Source: Diabrotica undecimpunctata
Lineage: Eukaryota > Arthropoda > Insecta > Coleoptera > Chrysomelidae
NCBI RefSeq assembly: GCF_040954645.1
Contig: NC_092807.1
Coordinates: forward strand, 54,525,239-54,589,238
Direction of reading: 5' to 3'
DNA: 64,000 nucleotides
Shown: piece by piece, positions 21,541 to 64,000 of the stretch
Layout: each line of letters opens with the position of its first letter
Numbering within the stretch: the first letter of the stretch is position 1
Program-made: the position numbers and the translations under genes
Notes under the pieces: model-generated
Seen by the model: the letters and a program-made list of their open reading frames with translations, nothing else
Told to the model about the DNA's origin: nothing
The model's database searches: none

Positions 21541-22440
<900 letters not shown>

Positions 22441-25191: not shown

Positions 25192-28100
25192 TATACTAAC
25201 CCAAGTTCCGAGGAGGAGGTTGTCAATCCTCTACCGGACGCGTCCCCAGGTGGCGGATAGGGGAATGCCTCCCAGATATGGGTGGTATCGGGGAAATGAA
25301 ATACCCGACGCGGACCAAAACTGACAACAGTAGCGTCTGACCCAGAGTGGGCGGCTGAACAATAGGTCCTCCAAAAGGGGGTTGTGGCGTTAGGCGTTAG
25401 CAACCTAGCACACTTAAAAAAATCCAAGGGCTAACGAACAATTGGCAGAAATGAAAAATTTTAAAATTAATCCCCGGGTGGCAATCCACACCTCCGAAGG
25501 AGGGAGCCCCATCGGATACGGGGGGGGGGCACTTCTGCTTTGAGTTCAACAAACCCGGCTTCGAAACTCAACCGAAGACAAAGACAGAGAAAACTAAGAA
25601 TCGGCACATGGAATGTGCAGGGCTGGAGAACAAAAGCCAGTGAAGTAACATCAGAATTCGAAAAGATGAATCTCGATATCCTCGTCACAACGGAAACAAA
25701 AAAGAAAGGAAACGCCACGGAAAGAATAGGGGAACTAATCCATTGTTGGAGCGGAGTAGAAAAGAAAGACCGCGCAAAAGCTGGAGTTGGAATTCTACTA
25801 AAGAAGAAATGGGAAAAATCTATAGACGATTGGGAACCCATAAACGAGAGAATTGCCAAACTGAAAATCAAGATGTATGGCAGAGAAATTATAATACTAG
25901 CAACATACGGTCCAACGGAAGACAGTCCAGCCAATGAGAAAGAACGATTTATCGAACAACTTCAAGAACAAATGGATAAGAGAAAACCTAAACAAGAAAT
26001 AATAATAGTGGGGGATCTAAATGGAAGAGTCGGAAGAAAAGACAATGACAGAACAGTTGGTCCATTTGGAGAAGACACAATTAACGACAACGGAGAAAGA
26101 TTGGTAGAACTATGTGAAGTAAATGATTTGAAAATTATGAACGGATTTTACAAACACAAAAATATACATAAGTACACATGGACTCAAGAGACAAGAAAAC
26201 TAAGATCCATTATTGACTACATTATCATGAACCACAAAAGCTCCATCAAAGTGAAAGACATCAGAGTGAAAAGAGGGGCAGAGTGTGGAACAGATCATAA
26301 ACTTGTGGTGGCATGGATGGAATTCCCCTATATCTGGACAAAACAAAAACATACATCGATTGTTACAACGGGAACGACAATAAACGAAAAGAGGCTCAAA
26401 TTACATCTATTGCAGGAAGAATCAATAAAAGATTTATACAAAAGAAGACTAGACCAAAAACTAGAAGAATTCAGATATGACACGTTAGATGAAATGCATG
26501 AACACATAAAAACCTGCCTGATTTCAGCGGCCTTAGAAGCTCTTGGAGAAGACGACCAAAGGAACACCCATCAGAATATCCAATTAAGGGAAGACACATT
26601 AAAATGCATAAAAGAAAAGAAAAAACTACACATAAAATACCTAAACACCAAAAAACAGGAAGACTTAGACCTATATAGAGCGAAAAACAGAGAGGTAAAG
26701 AAAAGAGTAACAAATGAAAAGAACGAACGATGGGAACAAGCATGCACAGAGATAGAACGACATATCGGAGGAACGAGAAATTCAGAATCATGGCGAATAT
26801 TAAAAGCACTTCAACGAAATAAGACAGAGAAAACCCAGATCGGCAAAATTAGTGAAAACGAGTGGCAAGAATACTACGTAGAACTACTTACAGAAAACCG
26901 TCCCCAATTTCAGGAAGAGAATATAGAACATGCAGGAAATGGGGCATACGACCAGATAGAAATAAGCCTGGCAGAAGTTAAGAGAGCAATCAAGACATTG
27001 AAAAACAAAAAAGCCAAAGGACCCGGAGGAATACCAAACGAACTAATTAAAAACGAAACGGAAAAGTTATTTCGCATGCTACATAGAATGTTCGAAAGAG
27101 GACTAAATGGAGAAGAAATACCTGCGGAATGGACACAAGCATACATCACATCCATACATAAGAAAGGAAACAGGAAAAAATGTGAAAACTATAGAGGAAT
27201 TAGTATAATATCGTCGGTAGGTAGACTTTACGGGAAAATTATTAAAGAAAAACTAGAAACTGAAATAATAGGAAAAATTGGAGAAGACCAAGCAGGGTTC
27301 ACAGTAGGAAAATCATGCCTAGATCATACGTACACATTAGAACAACTGATAGAGAAGAAAATGGCAAAAGGTAGACCGGTCCATCTGGCCTTTGTTGATC
27401 TAAAGAAAGCATATGACTCAATACCTAGAGTCAAATTATGGGAAGCAATGAATGATCTCGGAATCCGACAAACACTAATAAAAGCAGTTAAAGCACTATA
27501 CAAAGAAAACAAAGTAGCTATTAAATGTGGAAATAAAGCCTACAATCCATTTAAGACGACAAAAGGACTTCTACAAGGCTGTGCTACGTCCCCTACTCTG
27601 TTTAAAATATTCTTGGAAAAGACACTCAAACCATGGAGGAGAAAGTGCGAAGGAATGGGCATACCAGTAAGAGACGAATACCTATACACCTTAAGTTTTG
27701 CCGACGATCAAGTAGTCATCGCACAAGATGAAGAAGATCTCAGCTTTATGCTCAGAAAACTAGAAGAAGAATATAAAAACAACGGAATGGAAATAAACTT
27801 AGAGAAAACCGAATACCTAACAACAGAAAACAAGGATATGAGAAACCTAGAGATAGACGAGGGAAGACAAATAAATGGAACAGATAAATTCAAGTATTTA
27901 GGAACCATAATATCGAACCAGGGAACAACAGAAGAAGATATAAACAACAGACTGAGACAAACAAGAAACTGTATAAGACAACTAAACTCAGTGTTGTGGG
28001 ATAAGAACATTACGATAAAGACAAAAAAGAGAATATATAACACCCTGACAAGAAGTATCCTGACTTATGGGTCCGAAAACTGGACAATAAACAAGAGAAA

Positions 28101-28620
28101 TAGAGGTAGAATAAGAGCAGTAGAAATGGAGTTCCTGAGGAGAAGCTGTAGACTTACAAAAAGAGACAGAATTGAAAACGCAGAGATTAAGCGGAGAATG
28201 GGAGTGCAATCAGACATATCGACTATCGACATATCGACATATCGACAATCGACTATATAGAGGAGAAGAGACTATCCTGGTACGGCCACGTCAGAAGAGC
28301 GGACAGAGGACGCTGGATAAACAAAATCACAGAATGGAGCCCGATTGGAAGAAGAAAGAGAGGAAGACCCCGAAGGTCATTCAGAGATGAAATCGACGAG
28401 GCTATGGAGAAAAGAACCCTGCGAGATGGAGACTGGAATGATAGGGAAAATTGGAGAAAACGGTTAAGTGAAGGAAGACAGTGAAAACTGTGGAAATCCT
28501 TAGTAGTAGTATACTAACCCAAGTAAGACCTAAAATAATGAGCAGTTTGCAAAATATAGATTGCCATGATGGTTGCAAACATCCGAAACGGATAGGCACT
28601 ACAACAAGAAGAAGAAGGTT
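25192..28620 (+). mobile_element. RTE-like LINE, nearly complete
   Basis: The element comprises a GC-richer 5' region (25200-25540, with a 10-base G run at 25520-25529), one long endonuclease-RT frame, and a 3' end running into a short GAAGAAGAAG tail at about 28608-28618. The 15-base string tatactaacccaagt occurs at both 25192-25206 and 28510-28524. I could not find a clear target duplication. It is the best-preserved LINE in the window. Confidence 0.8.
25540..28260 (+). CDS. LINE endonuclease-reverse transcriptase (RTE-like), frameshifted at 3' end
   Basis: This 906-codon frame encodes an apurinic-type endonuclease followed by a reverse transcriptase, which nick the target and copy the element's RNA there. 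Endonuclease motifs: GTWNVQG (about residue 24), TTETKKKG, VGDLNGRVG, DYIIMN and GTDHKLV (about 250). RT motifs: KKAKGPGGIPNELIK, SIHKKGNRKKCENYRGISI, DQAGFTVGKSCLDH, FVDLKKAYDSIPR (about 617), LLQGCATSPTLF and FADD (about 720). All catalytic residues look intact. No ATG precedes the endonuclease motif; the frame is open from 25471, so initiation is non-ATG or upstream across the G run. A short duplicated 'atatcgac' stretch near 28215-28250 shifts the frame; the normal C-terminus (YIEEKRLSWYGHVRRADRGR ... GRRKRGRPRR) continues in another frame to TGA 28482-28484. Confidence 0.9.
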   Translation: MSSTNPASKLNRRQRQRKLRIGTWNVQGWRTKASEVTSEFEKMNLDILVTTETKKKGNATERIGELIHCWSGVEKKDRAKAGVGILLKKKWEKSIDDWEPINERIAKLKIKMYGREIIILATYGPTEDSPANEKERFIEQLQEQMDKRKPKQEIIIVGDLNGRVGRKDNDRTVGPFGEDTINDNGERLVELCEVNDLKIMNGFYKHKNIHKYTWTQETRKLRSIIDYIIMNHKSSIKVKDIRVKRGAECGTDHKLVVAWMEFPYIWTKQKHTSIVTTGTTINEKRLKLHLLQEESIKDLYKRRLDQKLEEFRYDTLDEMHEHIKTCLISAALEALGEDDQRNTHQNIQLREDTLKCIKEKKKLHIKYLNTKKQEDLDLYRAKNREVKKRVTNEKNERWEQACTEIERHIGGTRNSESWRILKALQRNKTEKTQIGKISENEWQEYYVELLTENRPQFQEENIEHAGNGAYDQIEISLAEVKRAIKTLKNKKAKGPGGIPNELIKNETEKLFRMLHRMFERGLNGEEIPAEWTQAYITSIHKKGNRKKCENYRGISIISSVGRLYGKIIKEKLETEIIGKIGEDQAGFTVGKSCLDHTYTLEQLIEKKMAKGRPVHLAFVDLKKAYDSIPRVKLWEAMNDLGIRQTLIKAVKALYKENKVAIKCGNKAYNPFKTTKGLLQGCATSPTLFKIFLEKTLKPWRRKCEGMGIPVRDEYLYTLSFADDQVVIAQDEEDLSFMLRKLEEEYKNNGMEINLEKTEYLTTENKDMRNLEIDEGRQINGTDKFKYLGTIISNQGTTEEDINNRLRQTRNCIRQLNSVLWDKNITIKTKKRIYNTLTRSILTYGSENWTINKRNRGRIRAVEMEFLRRSCRLTKRDRIENAEIKRRMGVQSDISTIDISTYRQSTI

Positions 28621-51235: not shown

Positions 51236-53674
51236 CTACTTATGATACTGATAAATGTCGTGAATGTTAAAATACCCCGTATATTGCCTGTCTTTATACG
51301 GGATTGGATATATTTTCGTTTTAAATTTTTCCAAGTATTTTCCCTTAAAAGAAAGTTCATAATTTTTAGCCACTCGGTTTACTTCATTAACAAAATCTCC
51401 ATGGTTTCCTAAAATCTTCTCTATTTTCTTTCCCATGTTTTCTCCACAATTTATTTTTCTTTCATCCTCCTTTTGTTCACATGTGTTCACTGTCCATAAT
51501 ACTTCTTCACAAAATTCTGGATTCTCGTCCATCAGTGCCATTTTTTCTTCTGTTTTCTTTTTATCCTCTAATTCCCTTTGGTATTCCGAGCACCATGTTT
51601 CTATTCCTTTCATTTCTCTGATGATACCTTTTTTTTCTTCCTGCTTCCATTCTGTTTTATCGTCGGTTGCCAACAATTCTTCTGTACCTTCTATTTCCTG
51701 TTTTTCTCTGGTCTCCATCTTATTTTCCTGCTTTCTTTTCGAACTCTTCTTCTTTTTCTTCCTTCTCTTTTTCTCTTCTGTTAGATCTTGTTCTTGTACT
51801 TTCGGTTTATCCTCTACAGTCATATCGATTTCTTTGCGTTTTTCCTGTGCATTGATCCTTCCAAAATTTGTTTTCCTATCTGTTTGCTTTTCTTCTCCTG
51901 TGTTGTCTGGTTCTGCTCTGATTTCCAGTTTATTTTCCGAAAAATTTATGGTGATATCTTTTTTTCTCAATTCATCAATTCCCGCTATCATATCATGATT
52001 TAAATCTTCAATCACCACACATTTCATAATATGGAATTTGTTTCCCACTCTTATCTGTACTCCCAAACCTTCGTTTACTGTCGTCAAATTTTTATTGTTT
52101 GCACCCACTAAATCAACCCTAGGAATCTTATACACAAATCTGTCCAAATTTAATTCTTTTACTAGTTTTTTATTGATTAGCGATATCTCCGAGCCAGAAT
52201 CAATCACAATTTTAATCGCTTTATGTTTTATAAATGCATCTAAAAATATTAGATTAGAATTAGAAATTTGTCTTTCGTTTCCTATTGCTACATGATTCAT
52301 CTCCCTTCTATTTTGTTGTTGGAAGCTCTGGTTATTTCTATCGTCCATTTGTTCGTTAGTATTCCTATTCGGAGGATTTTGTGCATCTCTATTCCTGTTG
52401 TGATTTTCATATGTTCTATGTTGTGTGTCATTCCTGTTATCGTAATTTTGTTGTCTATTGTAATTATTGTAATTTCTCGGCCTATATTCGTTTGTTGATC
52501 TGGGATGTCGGTTTCTCTGGTCATAATTTGATGAATATCTTCTTTTCGGTCCATTATATTGGTCATGTTGTCTTCTATTTCTCATTTCTTTTCTTTTCGC
52601 TTCTTTTAATTGAAGGAATTGGCACAAACTATCAATATCTTGATAGTTTCTCAAAATCACGTGATCTTCCAACGTTTCCTCAAAATGTCTGCTGATCATT
52701 TCTACCAGCTGTTCGGTAGAATATTTGTATTCTAGATATTTTGAATTGTTATATATCTGCAAAGCATATCTTTCTTCAGATATTCCCATTTTTTCGTGAT
52801 ATTTTCCATTCTGTAGCTCTTGGTTGATTTCTCTCTGTTTATTTTTCCCCCAGAAATAGTTGAGAAATTTATTTTCAAAATCTGTCCAATTTTCAAACTC
52901 ATCTTCCTTGCTTTCATACCATAACGCTGCTCCTTTTTTCAAATGGTTTCTAATTGTTTCTTTGCAATCGTCAAAATATCTAATATGTTGTAATTTGGTT
53001 TTCAGATTTTTAACAAACGGTACTGGGTGTGTTTTCCGAATATCCCCGCCAAATTGTATTTTCGCCTCGCTTGTTCCATGGATGATAACTGCTTTTCTCT
53101 CTACCCCTCTTAGTTCAATTTCTGCCATTTGTTTTTCATTTTGCTTTAATCTTCTTTCTACTTCCTTCCTGTCTTCTTGTAGCGCCATTTCAAATTTTTC
53201 TTCTAACTGTTCTAATTCCTTTTTCTGGACAATCTTTATTTCCTTCATCGTATTTTGGATATCTTTTATCTCTGTCTCTTGTTTTGCATTCTTTATGTTT
53301 ATTTCTTCTATCTGTTGTATCAGTTCTTTCTTTATCCCCTCAACACATCCATTAATTTCTTGTTCATAGTTTTCCAAACGCTGCTCTATATTCCTGTTAT
53401 TTAGTTCTATTGCTTGTCTTGTTTCCCGTTGGTTTTCTTCCATTGTTTGTTTTGTTTCTTGTTGATTTCTATCCATTTTCTTTGATGTTTCATTCATTGT
53501 TTGTGTCTGTATTTGCATCATTGCTAATAATTTCTCTATTCCTGATAATTCTTTTTTCTCCTCAACTATTGTAACATTTCCTTCATTATCCGATCCTTCT
53601 TCAACAATTGTTTCTTCTTCTCTGTTATCCTCCTTCCTTTCTTGCATTTTGCTTTGACTCCTTGTGGTCGACAT
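51236..53674 (-). CDS. Gag-protease polyprotein of the LTR element
   Basis: About 812 codons from the ATG at 53674 (the frame is open 12 codons further up but without ATG). Residues 50-190: Gln/Glu/Lys-rich coiled coil. Residues 205-360: capsid-like Gag domain, including HLKKGAALWYESKEDEFENW and a YFWGKNKQREI segment typical of gypsy Gag. Residues 370-460: Asn/Arg/Tyr-rich basic nucleocapsid region without CCHC knuckles. Residues 480-575: retropepsin with VIDSGSEISLINKKL (active Asp in D-S-G) and HDMIAGIDELRKKDITINF. Then a long Lys/Glu-rich insert, and a last 40 residues (NYELSFKGKYLEKFKTKIYP, IPYK) like the Pol segment just before RT. The protein stops at 51236 where RT should begin. Intact frame and 1% LTR divergence suggest a recent insertion. 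Confidence 0.88.
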   Translation of the reverse strand: MSTTRSQSKMQERKEDNREEETIVEEGSDNEGNVTIVEEKKELSGIEKLLAMMQIQTQTMNETSKKMDRNQQETKQTMEENQRETRQAIELNNRNIEQRLENYEQEINGCVEGIKKELIQQIEEINIKNAKQETEIKDIQNTMKEIKIVQKKELEQLEEKFEMALQEDRKEVERRLKQNEKQMAEIELRGVERKAVIIHGTSEAKIQFGGDIRKTHPVPFVKNLKTKLQHIRYFDDCKETIRNHLKKGAALWYESKEDEFENWTDFENKFLNYFWGKNKQREINQELQNGKYHEKMGISEERYALQIYNNSKYLEYKYSTEQLVEMISRHFEETLEDHVILRNYQDIDSLCQFLQLKEAKRKEMRNRRQHDQYNGPKRRYSSNYDQRNRHPRSTNEYRPRNYNNYNRQQNYDNRNDTQHRTYENHNRNRDAQNPPNRNTNEQMDDRNNQSFQQQNRREMNHVAIGNERQISNSNLIFLDAFIKHKAIKIVIDSGSEISLINKKLVKELNLDRFVYKIPRVDLVGANNKNLTTVNEGLGVQIRVGNKFHIMKCVVIEDLNHDMIAGIDELRKKDITINFSENKLEIRAEPDNTGEEKQTDRKTNFGRINAQEKRKEIDMTVEDKPKVQEQDLTEEKKRRKKKKKSSKRKQENKMETREKQEIEGTEELLATDDKTEWKQEEKKGIIREMKGIETWCSEYQRELEDKKKTEEKMALMDENPEFCEEVLWTVNTCEQKEDERKINCGENMGKKIEKILGNHGDFVNEVNRVAKNYELSFKGKYLEKFKTKIYPIPYKDRQYTGYFNIHDIYQYHK

Positions 53675-54078
53675 GTTGTTTCTTTTCGTTACTGTTTTTG
53701 TCCCCGCCAAATGTGAAATTTTACAACACTCTATATGTTTCAGAACACGACAATATTTCTCCCCAAATGTATTAAATTTTCACGACAAATATCAAATATG
53801 CAATCAGTAAAATTCAAATAATTCAAAATAAATATCAAATGTACGATTGGTAAAGAAAATAAAATCAAATAATTCAATAGCAGTAAATATCCACTAACTA
53901 CGATCAATCAATAAATCAAATTTATATTCCCTGGAAAAATTGTCAAAATACTTTCAAATTCAAATTCCCTCAATGTTATATGTTTTTATCTCTGGATCAC
54001 CTGTACTTATTCCAGATCTCTTTCCCTTCCTTCAAATGTAAAGCTGCGATATTTTCAAGCCCCACGTTTTGGAAGCCA
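53675..54078 (-). promoter_or_regulatory. Leader and probable primer-binding site of the LTR element
   Basis: Directly after the 5' LTR on the minus strand, TGGCTTCCAAAACG (54065-54078) begins with the TGG expected of a tRNA-complementary primer site; the matching tRNA was not identified. The remainder is untranslated leader. Confidence 0.55.
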
Positions 54079-55624
<1,546 letters not shown>

Positions 55625-55693
55625 TCTAAAATAACAGCTGAACTGGTAGATGAAAAAGGGGGGTTGAGGTTAATTGGGTATACAGCTGATTAA

Positions 55694-58178
55694 AAGCCAA
55701 GTGTACCAAATGTTTTCTACGAAAACATCGAGTACCACTACGGAACTGATGCCGTCAACTATTTAAAACTATGGTCAAAGACAAACAAGAAATTAGCTAA
55801 AGAAAGAAATAGAAAACAATTCTTATTGAACTGTCGAACAATGGGATTACAACCAACGCACCTCAAGCAAGTAACTATACCAGTTGAAGACCTGTTGCTA
55901 AGACAAGAACCAGAAGCACAACATGAACTTTTAAAGATACAAAAAAGGTTAAGTACTATTTTACTAAATAAAGAAATTCATTTTGTACACAAATCAATAA
56001 ACAAATTAGAACATAAACTTACACTACTTAAAGATAAAATCATTAATAATATAAATGAATACACTTTTAATGAATTTTCTAGCAAACAATTAATTGTATA
56101 CAACAGACTATATCACAGAATTAAAAGAACACAAATCAATAAATTAGAAAAATTAAAAAATGATTTTGAATCCATACATTTTAACACAAAATCAAGCTGG
56201 TTAAAAAACATTAGTAATGTAGATATTCCTAAAGATATTGAAAAATTTTTAGCACTAGGCCCAAAGTTTAGTATTGAACCAAAACTGAATAACGACATTG
56301 CAATAAAGAACCTACTTGCTGACATTGATTTGGTAGCTTCTTCAATTAAAAACGAACAAACAAAAACAAACACAAGAGCTAGATCCACAAACGTACTCAC
56401 TAATTACGCTAAACGCAATAAAAAGACTAACAACTACTTTCACTATTTACTAGGCAAAACAAAAAAATTTCTCAGAGAACATCCAGAACTTATAGTCACT
56501 AGATCTGATAAAGGGAACGTTACTGTAGTCATGAAACAAACAGACTACACAGAACTATCACAACAAATCCTTAATGATAATAAAATATATTTAGAATTAA
56601 ATTCTGATCCTACACTCAAAATACAAAAAGAAAGTAATAGTCTAGTACAGAATTTGTTCCATAAGAAATTTATTGACGAACCTACCAAAAAGCAACTAAC
56701 AAAATATAACAGTAACTCTCCAAAATTCTATGCATTGCCAAAAATACACAAACCGACATTATCACTAAGACCTATTGTTTCATCAATTAACTCTCCAACT
56801 GAAAATATTGCAAACTTTGTAAAAAACATCCTAACTGTATCATATGACTTCGATAATGAGTACTACATAAATGACTCATTCGACGTAAAAACAACATTTA
56901 ATGGATTAAAACTTCCTAATGACTACGTCCTTATAAGTCTGGACGTCATTTCCCTTTTTACTAATATCTATCTAGACGCTTGTCTAAGATCCATAAACAA
57001 ACATTGGTCCGACATAAGTAAACATTGCAAAATCGATAAAGATAACTTCTTAGCTTTAGTCCGATTCCTATTCAATAACACATACTTCTCCTTTAATAAC
57101 AAAATATATAAACAAAAAATAGGCACCCCCATGGGAGGATGTGTGAGTTCTATTCTGGCCCCATATGTTATGGGTGACCTCTTAGATATACTCATCCCTG
57201 TTCTTCCATTTAAAATAACCTATAAAAAGACATGATTAATGAACTCTTATACATTTTTAACGACTTCGACCGACATATAAAATTTACAGTTGAAACAGAA
57301 GACAAACATCAGTCAATCCCATTCCTTGACACCAAACTAATACCTAACAATAACAACATAATAACAACAGATTGGTATATGAAACCTATTAGTTCCGGAA
57401 GATACATTAACTATTGGTCATATCATAAGCATAGCACAAAAATTAATCTTATAAAACAAATGAAAAACAGAATTTTACAAATTGCAGATCAATCACTCTA
57501 TTATAAAAACCTAAAAATCCTTCATCAGCTCTTTCTAGACAATTCATACCCAAACACATTACTTACTAAAATACTATTTAACACAACAAATGATACATTA
57601 TCTGTAACACAAACCATCTCTAACCACACACCACAAAACACTACACCTACACTAGACACAACCCCTAACACTAATTTAACTCCTTTTAAACACTTTAAAT
57701 TACCCTTCATACAAGACTTAACACCGAAACTTACACGAATTTTCAAATCAGTTGACGACAACATAAAAATCGCTAATTACGCAGTGTTAAACATTAATTA
57801 GATATTCACCAAACTAAAAGATAAAATACCTACTGATCAATTATCTAATATAGTCTATCGTATCCCGTGCGGAAGTTGTAACAAACAATATATTGGCCAA
57901 ACCAACAGACACCTAAAAAGTCGCATCACTTCCCACAAGATGACAGCAGATTATATCCTGATAGATGTTCCCTTGCAAAACACGTACATGATGAACACCA
58001 CATAATGAACTACAGTGAAACAAAGATTCTTGCAATGGAAAATAATCTCAATAAAAGACTCTTCCTCGAGATGGCATTTATCATTCAAATGGATAATTTA
58101 ATAAATAAGAAATCAGATGTTGAACATCTGAGTGAGATTTATGCTTATTTATTACACATCGAAAAACAAACATTATAA
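55694..58178 (+). pseudogene. Penelope-like reverse transcriptase with GIY-YIG endonuclease, broken
   Basis: The main frame is open from 55694 without ATG (first Met at 55841). The N-terminal domain includes KLWSKTNKKLAKERNRKQFL and a helical region. RT motifs: ITRSDKGNVTVVMKQTDYTE (as VTRSDKGN...), KFYALPKIHKPTLSLRPIVS, YVLISLDVISLFTNIYLDAC (first Asp) and KIGTPMGGCVSSILAPYVMG. At about 57235 the frame shifts and the YVDD strand is missing; the next piece is INELLYIFNDFDRHIKFTVE and IPFLDTKLI. A TAG at 57799-57801 precedes the GIY-YIG domain (IVYRIPCGSCNKQYIGQTNR, HLKSRITSHK), and another shift near 57960 precedes SLAKHVHDEHHIMN and KRLFLEMAFII, ending at TAA 58176-58178. The copy cannot reverse transcribe. 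Confidence 0.92.
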
Positions 58179-58597
58179 ATAGACACATATAACTATTAAA
58201 TAATTAATACAACACATAATGTAATTTCAAAAAAATTTTTCAACTATAACACACCTTACAGTAAATATTAATCAAATAAACAACTACTACGTCAACACCA
58301 TGGAACTAATCATCTTCACAAAAGTCAATTAATAACATTCGATATTTGATAGTTCTAGTACTTAACCTTAATGATATTTACCGAACTAAACGTTGTGTCT
58401 GTTTTATTTTTAATTTGAATTGAATTGAATTTTAATTTGTAATCAACATCAACTACAATCAACATTATTCCAACAAAAAAATTTTTACTTGATGGTATTA
58501 AAATAAATCGCACTGTCATTAACCTCAATTAAGTAAGTATATAAACAACAAACTATTATTAAATTGTATTTTACCATGTTTTAAATAATTGTAGCTC

Positions 58598-58637
58598 TCA
58601 TCTGATGATGCCAATGAAAATTGGCGAAATATAATGA
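58598..58637 (+). ncRNA. Hammerhead ribozyme, type I, at 3' end of Penelope-like element
   Basis: TCAT, CTGATGA, one unpaired T, helix II GCCAAT/ATTGGC closed by a GAAA loop, GAAA, TAT, A, ATGA. Helix II is a perfect 6 bp with a GNRA loop; helix I is 4 bp (TCAT/ATGA); helix III is the short palindrome AUAU. Cleavage is predicted after A 58633. Sense strand of the element, 420 bases after the coding end. Type I hammerheads in Penelope-like terminal repeats are established knowledge. Confidence 0.85.
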
Positions 58638-58698
58638 ATTGTTAAACAGAGTACACTTGGCTTTTAATCAGCTGTATACCCAATTAACCTCAACCCCC

Positions 58699-61719
<3,021 letters not shown>

Positions 61720-61796
<77 letters not shown>

Positions 61797-61832
61797 CATA
61801 CATATTTATATATATATATATATACATATACA

Positions 61833-61873
<41 letters not shown>
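61720..61873. repeat. (TA)n tract
   Basis: TA with CA and TT interruptions, running directly into the first 359-bp monomer. Confidence 0.95.
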
Positions 61874-61879
<6 letters not shown>

Positions 61880-61918
61880 GTAAAAGATTGCATTTCATTT
61901 CAATCGGAACTCCACCAT

Positions 61919-61962
61919 TGCTCTACACGTGTTTCGAGTTATTCAACTCATCATCAGGAGCA
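61919..61962 (-). ncRNA. Hammerhead ribozyme, array copy 1
   Basis: Minus strand: TGCTC, CTGATGA, one unpaired T, helix II GAGTT/AACTC with GAAT loop, GAAA, CACGTGT, A, GAGCA. Helix I is a perfect 5 bp (TGCTC/GAGCA) and, after a small internal loop, continues as CTTCCAC/GTGGAG and the 13-bp outer repeat (arms to 61890 and 61991). Helix III is the palindrome ACACGUGU, either a 2-bp stem with a 4-nt loop or, between two RNAs, an 8-bp duplex. Cleavage is predicted between 61924 and 61923, giving 359-nt monomers from a multimer. Confidence 0.9.
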
Positions 61963-62277
61963 CTTGTGGAAGTTCAACTGAAATGAAATGCAGTCTAGTA
62001 TTTGGTTATTATAACCAAAATAACAGAAAGGTACGCTAGCAGCGACATCTATACGAAGTAACAAGAAGTCCAGAGACCTCTCTGATAGTAAATTAGGTGA
62101 ACCGCAAATTCAAAGCCTCTTACTAGAGACTTTTAACGACGCTAGAAGTATCTTTTTACTTCAACAAGCATCTACGATTCACCTTTGAAAATTACTATCT
62201 TTTTCGCTCTTTACGTAGAGAAAGACGTTTAAATGAAAGTAAAAGATTGCATTTCATTTCAATCGGAACTCCACCAT

Positions 62278-62321
62278 TGCTCTACACGTGTTTCGAGTTA
62301 TTCAACTCATCATCAGGAGCA
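62278..62321 (-). ncRNA. Hammerhead ribozyme, array copy 2
   Basis: Identical to copy 1, 359 bases downstream. Confidence 0.9.
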
Positions 62322-62636
62322 CTTGTGGAAGTTCAACTGAAATGAAATGCAGTCTAGTATTTGGTTATTATAACCAAAATAACAGAAAGGTACGCTAGCA
62401 GCGACATCTATACGAAGTAACAAGAAGTCCAGAGACCTCTCTGATAGTAAATTAGGTGAACCGCAAATTCAAAGCCTCTTACTAGAGACTTTTAACGACG
62501 CTAGAAGTATCTTTTTACTTCAACAAGCATCTACGATTCACCTTTGAAAATTACTATCTTTTTCGCTCTTTACGTAGAGAAAGACGTTTAAATGAAAGTA
62601 AAAGATTGCATTTCATTTCAATCGGAACTCCACCAT

Positions 62637-62680
62637 TGCTCTACACGTGTTTCGAGTTATTCAACTCATCATCAGGAGCA
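62637..62680 (-). ncRNA. Hammerhead ribozyme, array copy 3
   Basis: Identical to copy 1. Confidence 0.9.
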
Positions 62681-62995
62681 CTTGTGGAAGTTCAACTGAA
62701 ATGAAATGCAGTCTAGTATTTGGTTATTATAACCAAAATAACAGAAAGGTACGCTAGCAGCGACATCTATACGAAGTAACAAGAAGTCCAGAGACCTCTC
62801 TGATAGTAAATTAGGTGAACCGCAAATTCAAAGCCTCTTACTAGAGACTTTTAACGACGCTAGAAGTATCTTTTTACTTCAACAAGCATCTACGATTCAC
62901 CTTTGAAAATTACTATCTTTTTCGCTCTTTACGTAGAGAAAGACGTTTAAATGAAAGTAAAAGATTGCATTTCATTTCAATCGGAACTCCACCAT

Positions 62996-63039
62996 TGCTC
63001 TACACGTGTTTCGAGTTATTCAACTCATCATCAGGAGCA
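62996..63039 (-). ncRNA. Hammerhead ribozyme, array copy 4
   Basis: Identical to copy 1. Confidence 0.9.
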
Positions 63040-63354
63040 CTTGTGGAAGTTCAACTGAAATGAAATGCAGTCTAGTATTTGGTTATTATAACCAAAATAA
63101 CAGAAAGGTACGCTAGCAGCGACATCTATACGAAGTAACAAGAAGTCCAGAGACCTCTCTGATAGTAAATTAGGTGAACCGCAAATTCAAAGCCTCTTAC
63201 TAGAGACTTTTAACGACGCTAGAAGTATCTTTTTACTTCAACAAGCATCTACGATTCACCTTTGAAAATTACTATCTTTTTCGCTCTTTACGTAGAGAAA
63301 GACGTTTAAATGAAAGTAAAAGATTGCATTTCATTTCAATCGGAACTCCACCAT

Positions 63355-63398
63355 TGCTCTACACGTGTTTCGAGTTATTCAACTCATCATCAGGAGCA
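63355..63398 (-). ncRNA. Hammerhead ribozyme, array copy 5
   Basis: Identical to copy 1. Confidence 0.9.
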
Positions 63399-63713
63399 CT
63401 TGTGGAAGTTCAACTGAAATGAAATGCAGTCTAGTATTTGGTTATTATAACCAAAATAACAGAAAGGTACGCTAGCAGCGACATCTATACGAAGTAACAA
63501 GAAGTCCAGAGACCTCTCTGATAGTAAATTAGGTGAACCGCAAATTCAAAGCCTCTTACTAGAGACTTTTAACGACGCTAGAAGTATCTTTTTACTTCAA
63601 CAAGCATCTACGATTCACCTTTGAAAATTACTATCTTTTTCGCTCTTTACGTAGAGAAAGACGTTTAAATGAAAGTAAAAGATTGCATTTCATTTCAATC
63701 GGAACTCCACCAT

Positions 63714-63757
63714 TGCTCTACACGTGTTTCGAGTTATTCAACTCATCATCAGGAGCA
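63714..63757 (-). ncRNA. Hammerhead ribozyme, array copy 6
   Basis: Identical to copy 1; its monomer is truncated by the window end but the ribozyme is complete. Confidence 0.9.
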
Positions 63758-64000
63758 CTTGTGGAAGTTCAACTGAAATGAAATGCAGTCTAGTATTTGG
63801 TTATTATAACCAAAATAACAGAAAGGTACGCTAGCAGCGACATCTATACGAAGTAACAAGAAGTCCAGAGACCTCTCTGATAGTAAATTAGGTGAACCGC
63901 AAATTCAAAGCCTCTTACTAGAGACTTTTAACGACGCTAGAAGTATCTTTTTACTTCAACAAGCATCTACGATTCACCTTTGAAAATTACTATCTTTTTC

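What the first reader, a model, noticed from the sequence alone, without database searches (positions are those of the whole stretch)
61874..64000. 359-bp tandem array in which every monomer encodes a type I hammerhead ribozyme (retrozyme-like)
Six consecutive monomers at exact 359-base spacing, with no difference seen, each carry on the minus strand CTGATGA, a closed helix II, GAAA, a palindromic helix III and a perfect 5-bp helix I, extended by 6-7 more pairs and a 13-bp outer repeat. A multimeric minus-strand transcript would cut itself into 359-nt units. Tandem 170-400-bp repeats with type I hammerheads are the known layout of animal retrozymes, which give abundant circular RNAs. The lack of divergence points to very recent or ongoing amplification, or rolling-circle-derived DNA. 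Whether this family is described I cannot tell.
Basis: partly seen in the sequence, partly recalled or inferred. Interest (0 to 1): 0.92.

Follow-up and report, generated by a model that had tools for sequence, protein, structure and literature searches.

The report
Hammerhead retrozyme inserting like Penelope elements
A beetle genome carries a family of small non-coding repeats with a predicted self-cutting RNA motif, and the way these repeats sit in the chromosomes looks like that of the genome's Penelope retrotransposons, which suggests that those elements move them.

Summary
Five full 359-bp monomers plus 332 nt, without differences, each carry a type I hammerhead fold on the minus strand.

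The genome is Diabrotica undecimpunctata, by exact contig lengths. The monomer recurs at 39 or more loci at 94-100% identity and is homologous to two other hammerhead families there. It is a mobile retrozyme family, not a lone satellite.

How it inserts: 22 of the 39 loci are head-to-head pairs with RNA 3' ends outward. Nineteen of the 22 have one end at start site 1 and the other at site 2; three have one odd end; none has the same site twice. All 16 ends read, and the window's own, lie in (TA)n. The genome's Penelope-like elements (PLEs) show this layout too: (TA)n at 18 of 20 ends asked for, and one short plus one long end in 8 of 8 resolved pairs.

Best reading: a non-autonomous retrozyme copied into (TA)n by PLE machinery. 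RNA cleavage, circles and the enzyme are untested.

The parts
61874..62232 (-). Monomer 1 of the 359-bp array; its RNA-sense 3' end (start site 1) is at 61874, against the AT tract
62233..64000 (-). Monomers 2-6 (the sixth incomplete, 332 nt), identical to monomer 1 where they overlap
61919..61962 (-). Hammerhead of copy 1: helix I 61958-61962 with 61919-61923, core CUGAUGA plus extra U 61950-61957, helix II 61936-61949, GAAA 61932-61935, palindrome 61926-61931; repeats every 359 bases
61923..61924 (-). Predicted cleavage site, between A17 (61924) and the first base of the 3' strand of helix I (61923)
   Evidence: position from the hammerhead alignment; cleavage not tested
61889..61992 (-). 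104-nt rod: extended helix I with 13-bp outer inverted repeat, hammerhead at its tip
61874..61888 (-). 15-nt tail from the rod to start site 1 (84 nt after the C of CUGAUGA); partly conserved in families B, C and the L058 relative
62043..62051 (-). TAGATGTCG of copy 1, conserved among families A, B and C, at start site 2 (+266 to +270)
61720..61873 (.). (AT)n tract, the target of the insertion on the visible side
55623..58702 (+). Decayed Penelope-like element in (TA)n on both sides, with a short inverted piece at its left end that bears the longer tail
58602..58636 (+). Hammerhead-like motif of that PLE, with the same extra U; its 3' end lies 101 nt after the C

Best explanation
The array is one insertion of a non-autonomous retrozyme. 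Inferred steps: a multimeric minus-strand RNA is cut by its hammerheads into 359-nt units, which are probably closed into circles by a host ligase. A Penelope-like reverse transcriptase with GIY-YIG endonuclease recognises the region around the hammerhead, cuts both strands of a (TA)n tract and reverse-transcribes the RNA from both. One strand starts at site 1 (84 nt after the C of CUGAUGA), the other at site 2 (+266 to +270, at TAGATGTCG). Running round the circle gives tandem copies, and the two halves meet head to head. Shown here by sequence: the hammerhead fold, the family of 39 or more loci, two preferred 3' ends, the outward orientation, one-of-each use, and the (TA)n target shared with PLEs of the same genome. 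Inferred: cleavage, circularisation, and the identity of the enzyme.
For: Family A: 39 loci; 22 head-to-head, 3' ends outward in all 22; 19 of 22 with one site-1 and one site-2 end, 0 with the same site twice. All 16 ends read at 8 chosen loci lie in (TA)n, against 198 of 8829 40-mers of the window; the window's own left end does too. Family B: 23 of 23 ends of 17 loci at 81-90 or 285-292 after the C of CUGACGA, one of each in 6 of 6 pairs, target duplications of 11-14 bp at 11 of 17. PLEs of the genome: 10 of 20 ends at +92 to +103 and 8 of 20 at +143 to +145, these 18 in (TA)n; one short and one long end in 8 of 8 resolved pairs. Published: a PLE protein cuts and extends both strands, starts internally at two adjacent sites and prefers AT-rich DNA (PMC11167929, parts 1-2 of 4 read); PLE inserts are mostly head-to-head, with a tail optionally on one of the inverted repeats (PMC3846280, passages). 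The PLE hammerheads found carry an extra core base as well.
Against: No RNA evidence of cleavage, circles or expression. The extra U and the alternative fold could weaken the ribozyme. Family B follows the same two-site rule but does not lie in (TA)n. Site 2 lies at +270 (A) and +285 to +292 (B), but at +137 to +145 in PLEs. Three of 22 A pairs have one odd end (q24, q72, q110). For 11 of the 19 regular A pairs the ends are known by match coordinates only, and 24 of 174 matches were not listed, so a short extra piece could hide there. The LINE control search did not complete.
Confidence: 0.75

Rival explanations
1. A retrozyme moved by a LINE through ordinary target-primed reverse transcription, the head-to-head pairs being made by twin priming.
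For: Family B has fixed 3' ends, variable 5' ends and target duplications of 11-14 bp; LINE-like ORFs are present in the window. PMC7229834 names LINEs as possible helpers. Twin priming (recalled) also gives outward 3' ends.
Against: In twin priming as I recall it the second start is variable; here both starts are fixed and one of each is used (A 19 of 22, B 6 of 6). The (TA)n target and the two-length ends match the PLEs of this genome.
Confidence: 0.15
2. The family moves through PLE machinery, but from uncut multimeric transcripts; the hammerhead is mainly a binding structure and circles play no part.
For: In vitro, hammerhead mutants of a PLE did not change insertion (PMC11167929). Inserts run across the predicted cut site, so the template was uncut or re-closed.
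Against: Animal retrozymes with this layout do make circles (PMC7229834). The core and the palindromic helix III are largely kept across families A, B and C.
Confidence: 0.25
3. An ordinary satellite array homogenised by unequal exchange or spread as extrachromosomal DNA; the hammerhead is a relic.
For: Head-to-tail copies without differences; some hammerhead repeats were first described as satellite DNA (PMC7229834).
Against: 39 or more dispersed loci with two preferred ends and fixed polarity; pairs kept through two-sided changes; target duplications in family B.
Confidence: 0.05

Closest known systems
Non-LTR retrozymes of animals (Cervera and de la Pena 2020, PMC7229834; parts 1-4 of 6 read)
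   Same: Type I hammerhead in a non-coding tandem unit of 170-400 nt, low GC, strongly self-paired, co-resident PLEs
   Different: Extra U in the core; not seen by Rfam Hammerhead_1; (TA)n target; most multi-copy loci here are head-to-head pairs with two fixed ends, which the parts read do not describe
Penelope-like elements with minimal hammerheads and a tail (PMC11167929, parts 1-2 of 4; PMC3846280, passages)
   Same: Hammerhead upstream of two start sites, head-to-head insertion, one long and one short end, AT-rich target, perfect tandem units, extra core base in this genome's PLEs
   Different: The 359-bp unit encodes no protein (longest ATG ORF 35 aa) and is non-autonomous; its site 2 is farther from the hammerhead
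Families B (386 bp) and C (L021) of this genome
   Same: Same rod, hammerhead place, tail and TAGATG(T/G)CG motif; B has the two-site rule
   Different: Canonical core without the extra U; B lies in other AT-rich DNA with 11-14 bp duplications
pDo500 hammerhead satellite of Dolichopoda cave crickets (PMC2837043; listing and start of abstract only)
   Same: Insect tandem repeat with a hammerhead
   Different: Described as a satellite; its sequence was not compared here

Membership tests
Animal non-LTR retrozyme | Type I hammerhead with conserved core in each unit | tested here: met
   Descriptor in 6 of 6 window copies, 0 in 100 shuffles, but only with one extra core base allowed
Animal non-LTR retrozyme | Tandem units of about 170-400 nt, low GC, no long ORF | tested here: met
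   359 nt, GC 36.5%, longest ATG ORF 35 aa on either strand of a trimer
Animal non-LTR retrozyme | Dispersed, mobile copies | tested here: met
   39 loci from the 150 matches listed of 174
Animal non-LTR retrozyme | Highly self-paired RNA | tested here: met
   Linear z -7.5 in 100 shuffles; circular z -6.3 in 60 shuffles
Animal non-LTR retrozyme | Co-existence with PLEs | tested here: met
   84 and 54 scored matches to two PLE queries, overlapping sets
Animal non-LTR retrozyme | Loop-loop contacts between helices I and II | not tested
   The internal loop and loop II are there; contacts were not modelled
Animal non-LTR retrozyme | Self-cleavage and 359-nt linear and circular RNA | not testable with these tools
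   No RNA data at hand
Rfam Hammerhead_1 (RF00163) | Score at or above the gathering cut-off | tested here: not met
   Not reported at gathering or at E up to 10; family B and C loci reach it
Penelope-like element | Encodes RT (with or without GIY-YIG endonuclease) | tested here: not met
   No ORF above 35 aa in the unit
Works like a PLE at insertion | Head-to-head inserts, 3' ends outward, one short and one long end, AT-rich target | tested here: met
   22 of 39 loci head-to-head; 19 of 22 one of each; 16 of 16 ends read in (TA)n

The most novel reading that the evidence does not exclude
Animal retrozymes are RNA parasites of Penelope-like elements. The PLE protein takes the retrozyme circle by its hammerhead region, opens a (TA)n tract on both strands and copies the circle from two fixed starts, one for each strand, round and round, so that an insertion is a head-to-head pair of arrays with one short and one long end. 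The same two-start rule governs the PLEs themselves.
Probability: 0.6. Interest if true: 0.87.

Novelty: new variant of a known kind. Interest (0 to 1): 0.77.

Why it matters
Which enzyme moves animal retrozymes is open: PMC7229834 names LINEs or PLEs and calls PLEs a strong candidate, on shared hammerheads, tandem copies and co-occurrence. Here the insertion sites themselves carry a PLE-like signature: target, orientation, fixed starts and one-of-each ends. That turns the question into a direct in vitro test, and it suggests a two-start, two-strand mechanism for PLE insertion and an origin for perfect tandem arrays in single events.

Tried and rejected
Rfam at the array gave only sub-threshold miRNA-model hits. 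An apparent retrozyme-PLE template-switch chimera at C1:12.26 Mb was dropped: the 71%-identical relative of family A there is more likely older flanking DNA beside a TA stretch into which a 98%-identical PLE inserted. The neighbouring 499-bp satellite (L010) shows no hammerhead in its array; one degenerate motif lies before it (L010:3333). The core pattern has no match in viral contigs. The PLE1 protein has no relative among solved structures by sequence at E up to 1.

Model R1 scores 53.8 bits on the antisense strand of the array itself, because the rod is near-palindromic, so 40-55 bits on families B and C were not taken alone as homology. No hit to the antisense strand of an intact B rod was listed at E up to 1. 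Outside the rod, shuffles scoring as high were 0 of 1000 (A-C), 0 of 1000 (B-C) and 2 of 1000 (A-B). Alignment A2 holds antisense rows of the window and is fitted to the structure; alignment A3 avoids both.

One head-to-head PLE (C4:132.07 Mb) is unresolved: its right piece, L087, runs on into what reads as an ORF start. The LINE control and the genome-wide family B search did not complete.

Full report
What is there. The window end holds five full 359-bp monomers and 332 nt of a sixth, with 0 differences. On the minus strand each holds helix I, CUGAUGA, an extra U, helix II, GAAA, the palindrome CACGUG, UA and the closing half of helix I. A descriptor finds these six and nothing else in the window, and nothing in 100 shuffles. 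The hammerhead tips a 104-nt rod; its fold lies 3.1 kcal/mol above the free-energy minimum. The unit has no ATG ORF above 35 aa and folds far more strongly than shuffles. Rfam does not report it, most likely because of the extra U. A viroid hammerhead with an extra core nucleotide is known to me by title from reference lists only.

Where it is. Four contig lengths of the assembly (C2, C3, C8, C9) equal those attached to Diabrotica undecimpunctata proteins, so the genome is that beetle. C5, the window's contig, is close to but not equal to a listed length (162,782,489 against 162,785,928).

Relatives. Rfam Hammerhead_1 gives 19 hits in the assembly, 16 of them over the cut-off (74 of 202,998 candidates scored). 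The 18 loci that cover them fall into a 386-bp family B (17 loci) and a third family C (L021). A model of the window unit (R1), run on 39 sources, also found a 71%-identical relative in L058. Outside the rod, shuffles scoring as high were 0 of 1000 for A-C, 0 of 1000 for B-C and 2 of 1000 for A-B. On an alignment not fitted to structure, RNAalifold recovers the rod, helix I and helix II; 17 of 38 predicted pairs are kept with both sides changed in at least one row; it draws other pairs inside the core, and 15 of the 18 rows are family B. On the structure-fitted alignment 91.0% of cells pair, against 37-46% when the partners are slid.

Family A in the genome. The DNA search gave 174 matches, 150 listed; the 150 form 39 loci, the window's among them. 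In 22 loci query-plus copies are followed by query-minus copies, in none the reverse: RNA 3' ends point outward. Nineteen of the 22 have one end at query 1-2 (site 1) and the other at query 172-174 (site 2); 10 have site 2 on the left and 9 on the right; none has the same site twice. Three have one odd end (q24, q72, q110). If two ends were drawn independently, at most half of the pairs would be mixed. The other 17 loci show copies in one direction, with the visible 3' end at site 1 in 13 and at site 2 in 4. I read 16 ends at 8 loci chosen from the 19: all 16 lie in (TA)n, against 198 of 8829 40-mers of the window; the 8 site-1 ends among them are confirmed by letters. For the other 11 pairs the ends rest on match coordinates, and a short unlisted piece could hide beyond a site-1 end. 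Because the tract is repetitive, the place of site 2 is uncertain by a few bases (+266 to +270 after the C of the core).

Family B. RNA-sense 3' ends: 8 single loci at 83-90 (the interrupted L020 counted here), 3 single loci at 285-292, and six head-to-head pairs (L014, L023-L027), each with one of each: 23 of 23 ends at two places. A shared flanking word of 11-14 bp, read as target duplication, is present at 11 of 17 loci (at L017 it lies 19 nt from the block edge); at the other six the longest shared word is 9 nt or less. By reading the flanks, none of the 17 abuts a TA tract. Site 2 falls at TAGATG(T/G)CG in A and B, which C also has. B inserts run over the cut site, up to 672 nt, so their template was uncut or re-closed RNA. 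The loci were picked by their hammerhead, so copies without it are not in this sample.

PLEs. The window has a decayed PLE 3.2 kb from the array, in (TA)n at both ends, with a longer tail on one side. A related PLE (PLE1, 844-aa ORF with RVT_1) aligns end to end, including a C-terminal YIG region, with three proteins for which Pfam GIY-YIG is listed; Pfam did not report GIY-YIG on PLE1 itself. Thirteen copies stand in one array of 3164-bp units, 7 in one direction and 6 in the other; ten units are identical and three differ from them by 1, 1 and 4 bases. By reading the listings, neighbouring opposite copies have their 3' ends outward; this was not scripted. Of 20 PLE1 3' ends asked for, 10 lie at +92 to +103 and 8 at +143 to +145, these 18 in (TA)n; one lies at +97 in other DNA; one piece has no hammerhead. 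Head-to-head insertions with one short and one long end: 8 of 8 resolved (window PLE; L059/L060; L061/L062; L077/L066; L081/L067; L082/L074; L084/L085; L088/L089); one more was unresolved. A hammerhead-like motif with an extra base after CTGANGA was seen in 29 of the 30 PLE loci (not in L057; in L055 the base is G, otherwise T).

Mechanism. A PLE protein was shown to cut and extend both strands, to start internally at two adjacent sites that make the genomic tail, downstream of the hammerhead, and to prefer AT-rich DNA; hammerhead mutants did not affect insertion in vitro, and no difference of start site between strands was seen there (PMC11167929). The last point is against a strict one-start-per-strand rule, unless it arises in cells. 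PLE inserts are most often head-to-head, with a tail optionally on one of the inverted repeats; that paper favoured self-priming on an antisense template as the cause (PMC3846280, passages). The retrozymes share this signature, and family A shares the target of the PLEs as well. So I read the array as the product of a PLE-type insertion that went several times round a retrozyme circle or multimer.

Known or not. PMC7229834 mentions retrozyme-like repeats in insects without sequence detail in the parts I read. Searches on retrozyme, hammerhead, tandem and Penelope, satellite and beetle, Diabrotica, PLE and minimal hammerheads, retrozyme and target-primed reverse transcription, later Penelope-retrozyme papers, PLE tails and inverted repeats, PLE microsatellite targets and retrozymes in insects listed no paper that by its title or abstract start reports this link. 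Most of the listed texts were not read, listings were cut, and subscription papers are not held.

Limits. No RNA data; the right end of this array is unseen; counts of family A are lower bounds; the LINE control did not complete.

Noticed in passing
58836-61719: A DNA-transposon-like element between the PLE and the array: inverted ends CGTCGGCATACTGCC, both next to TA tracts, with an ORF carrying DUF7869.
   Followed up: partly
L010:4422-10000: A 499-bp satellite array (11.3 copies in view, 97% matches) lies about 14 kb beyond the window; a degenerate hammerhead-like motif lies just before it (L010:3333).
   Followed up: partly
G000:C4:43666733-43708543: A 13-copy head-to-head array of a PLE with identical or nearly identical 3164-bp units; similar arrays of a 3272-bp PLE on C3 and C4.
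   Followed up: partly
L021:2964-3087: A third hammerhead retrozyme family (C) with a canonical core; its copy number and ends were not studied.
   Followed up: partly
window, 12 places: Twelve TA/AT tracts make up 1257 bases of the 64 kb, many at ends of mobile elements; why this genome has so many was not studied.
   Followed up: no
21872-22412: A 273-bp unit twice in tandem (87% matches), close to two TA tracts.
   Followed up: no
25471-28260 and 51236-53779: Long ORFs that read like a LINE reverse transcriptase (929 aa) and a gag-protease-like protein (847 aa); named by eye from the translations.
   Followed up: no
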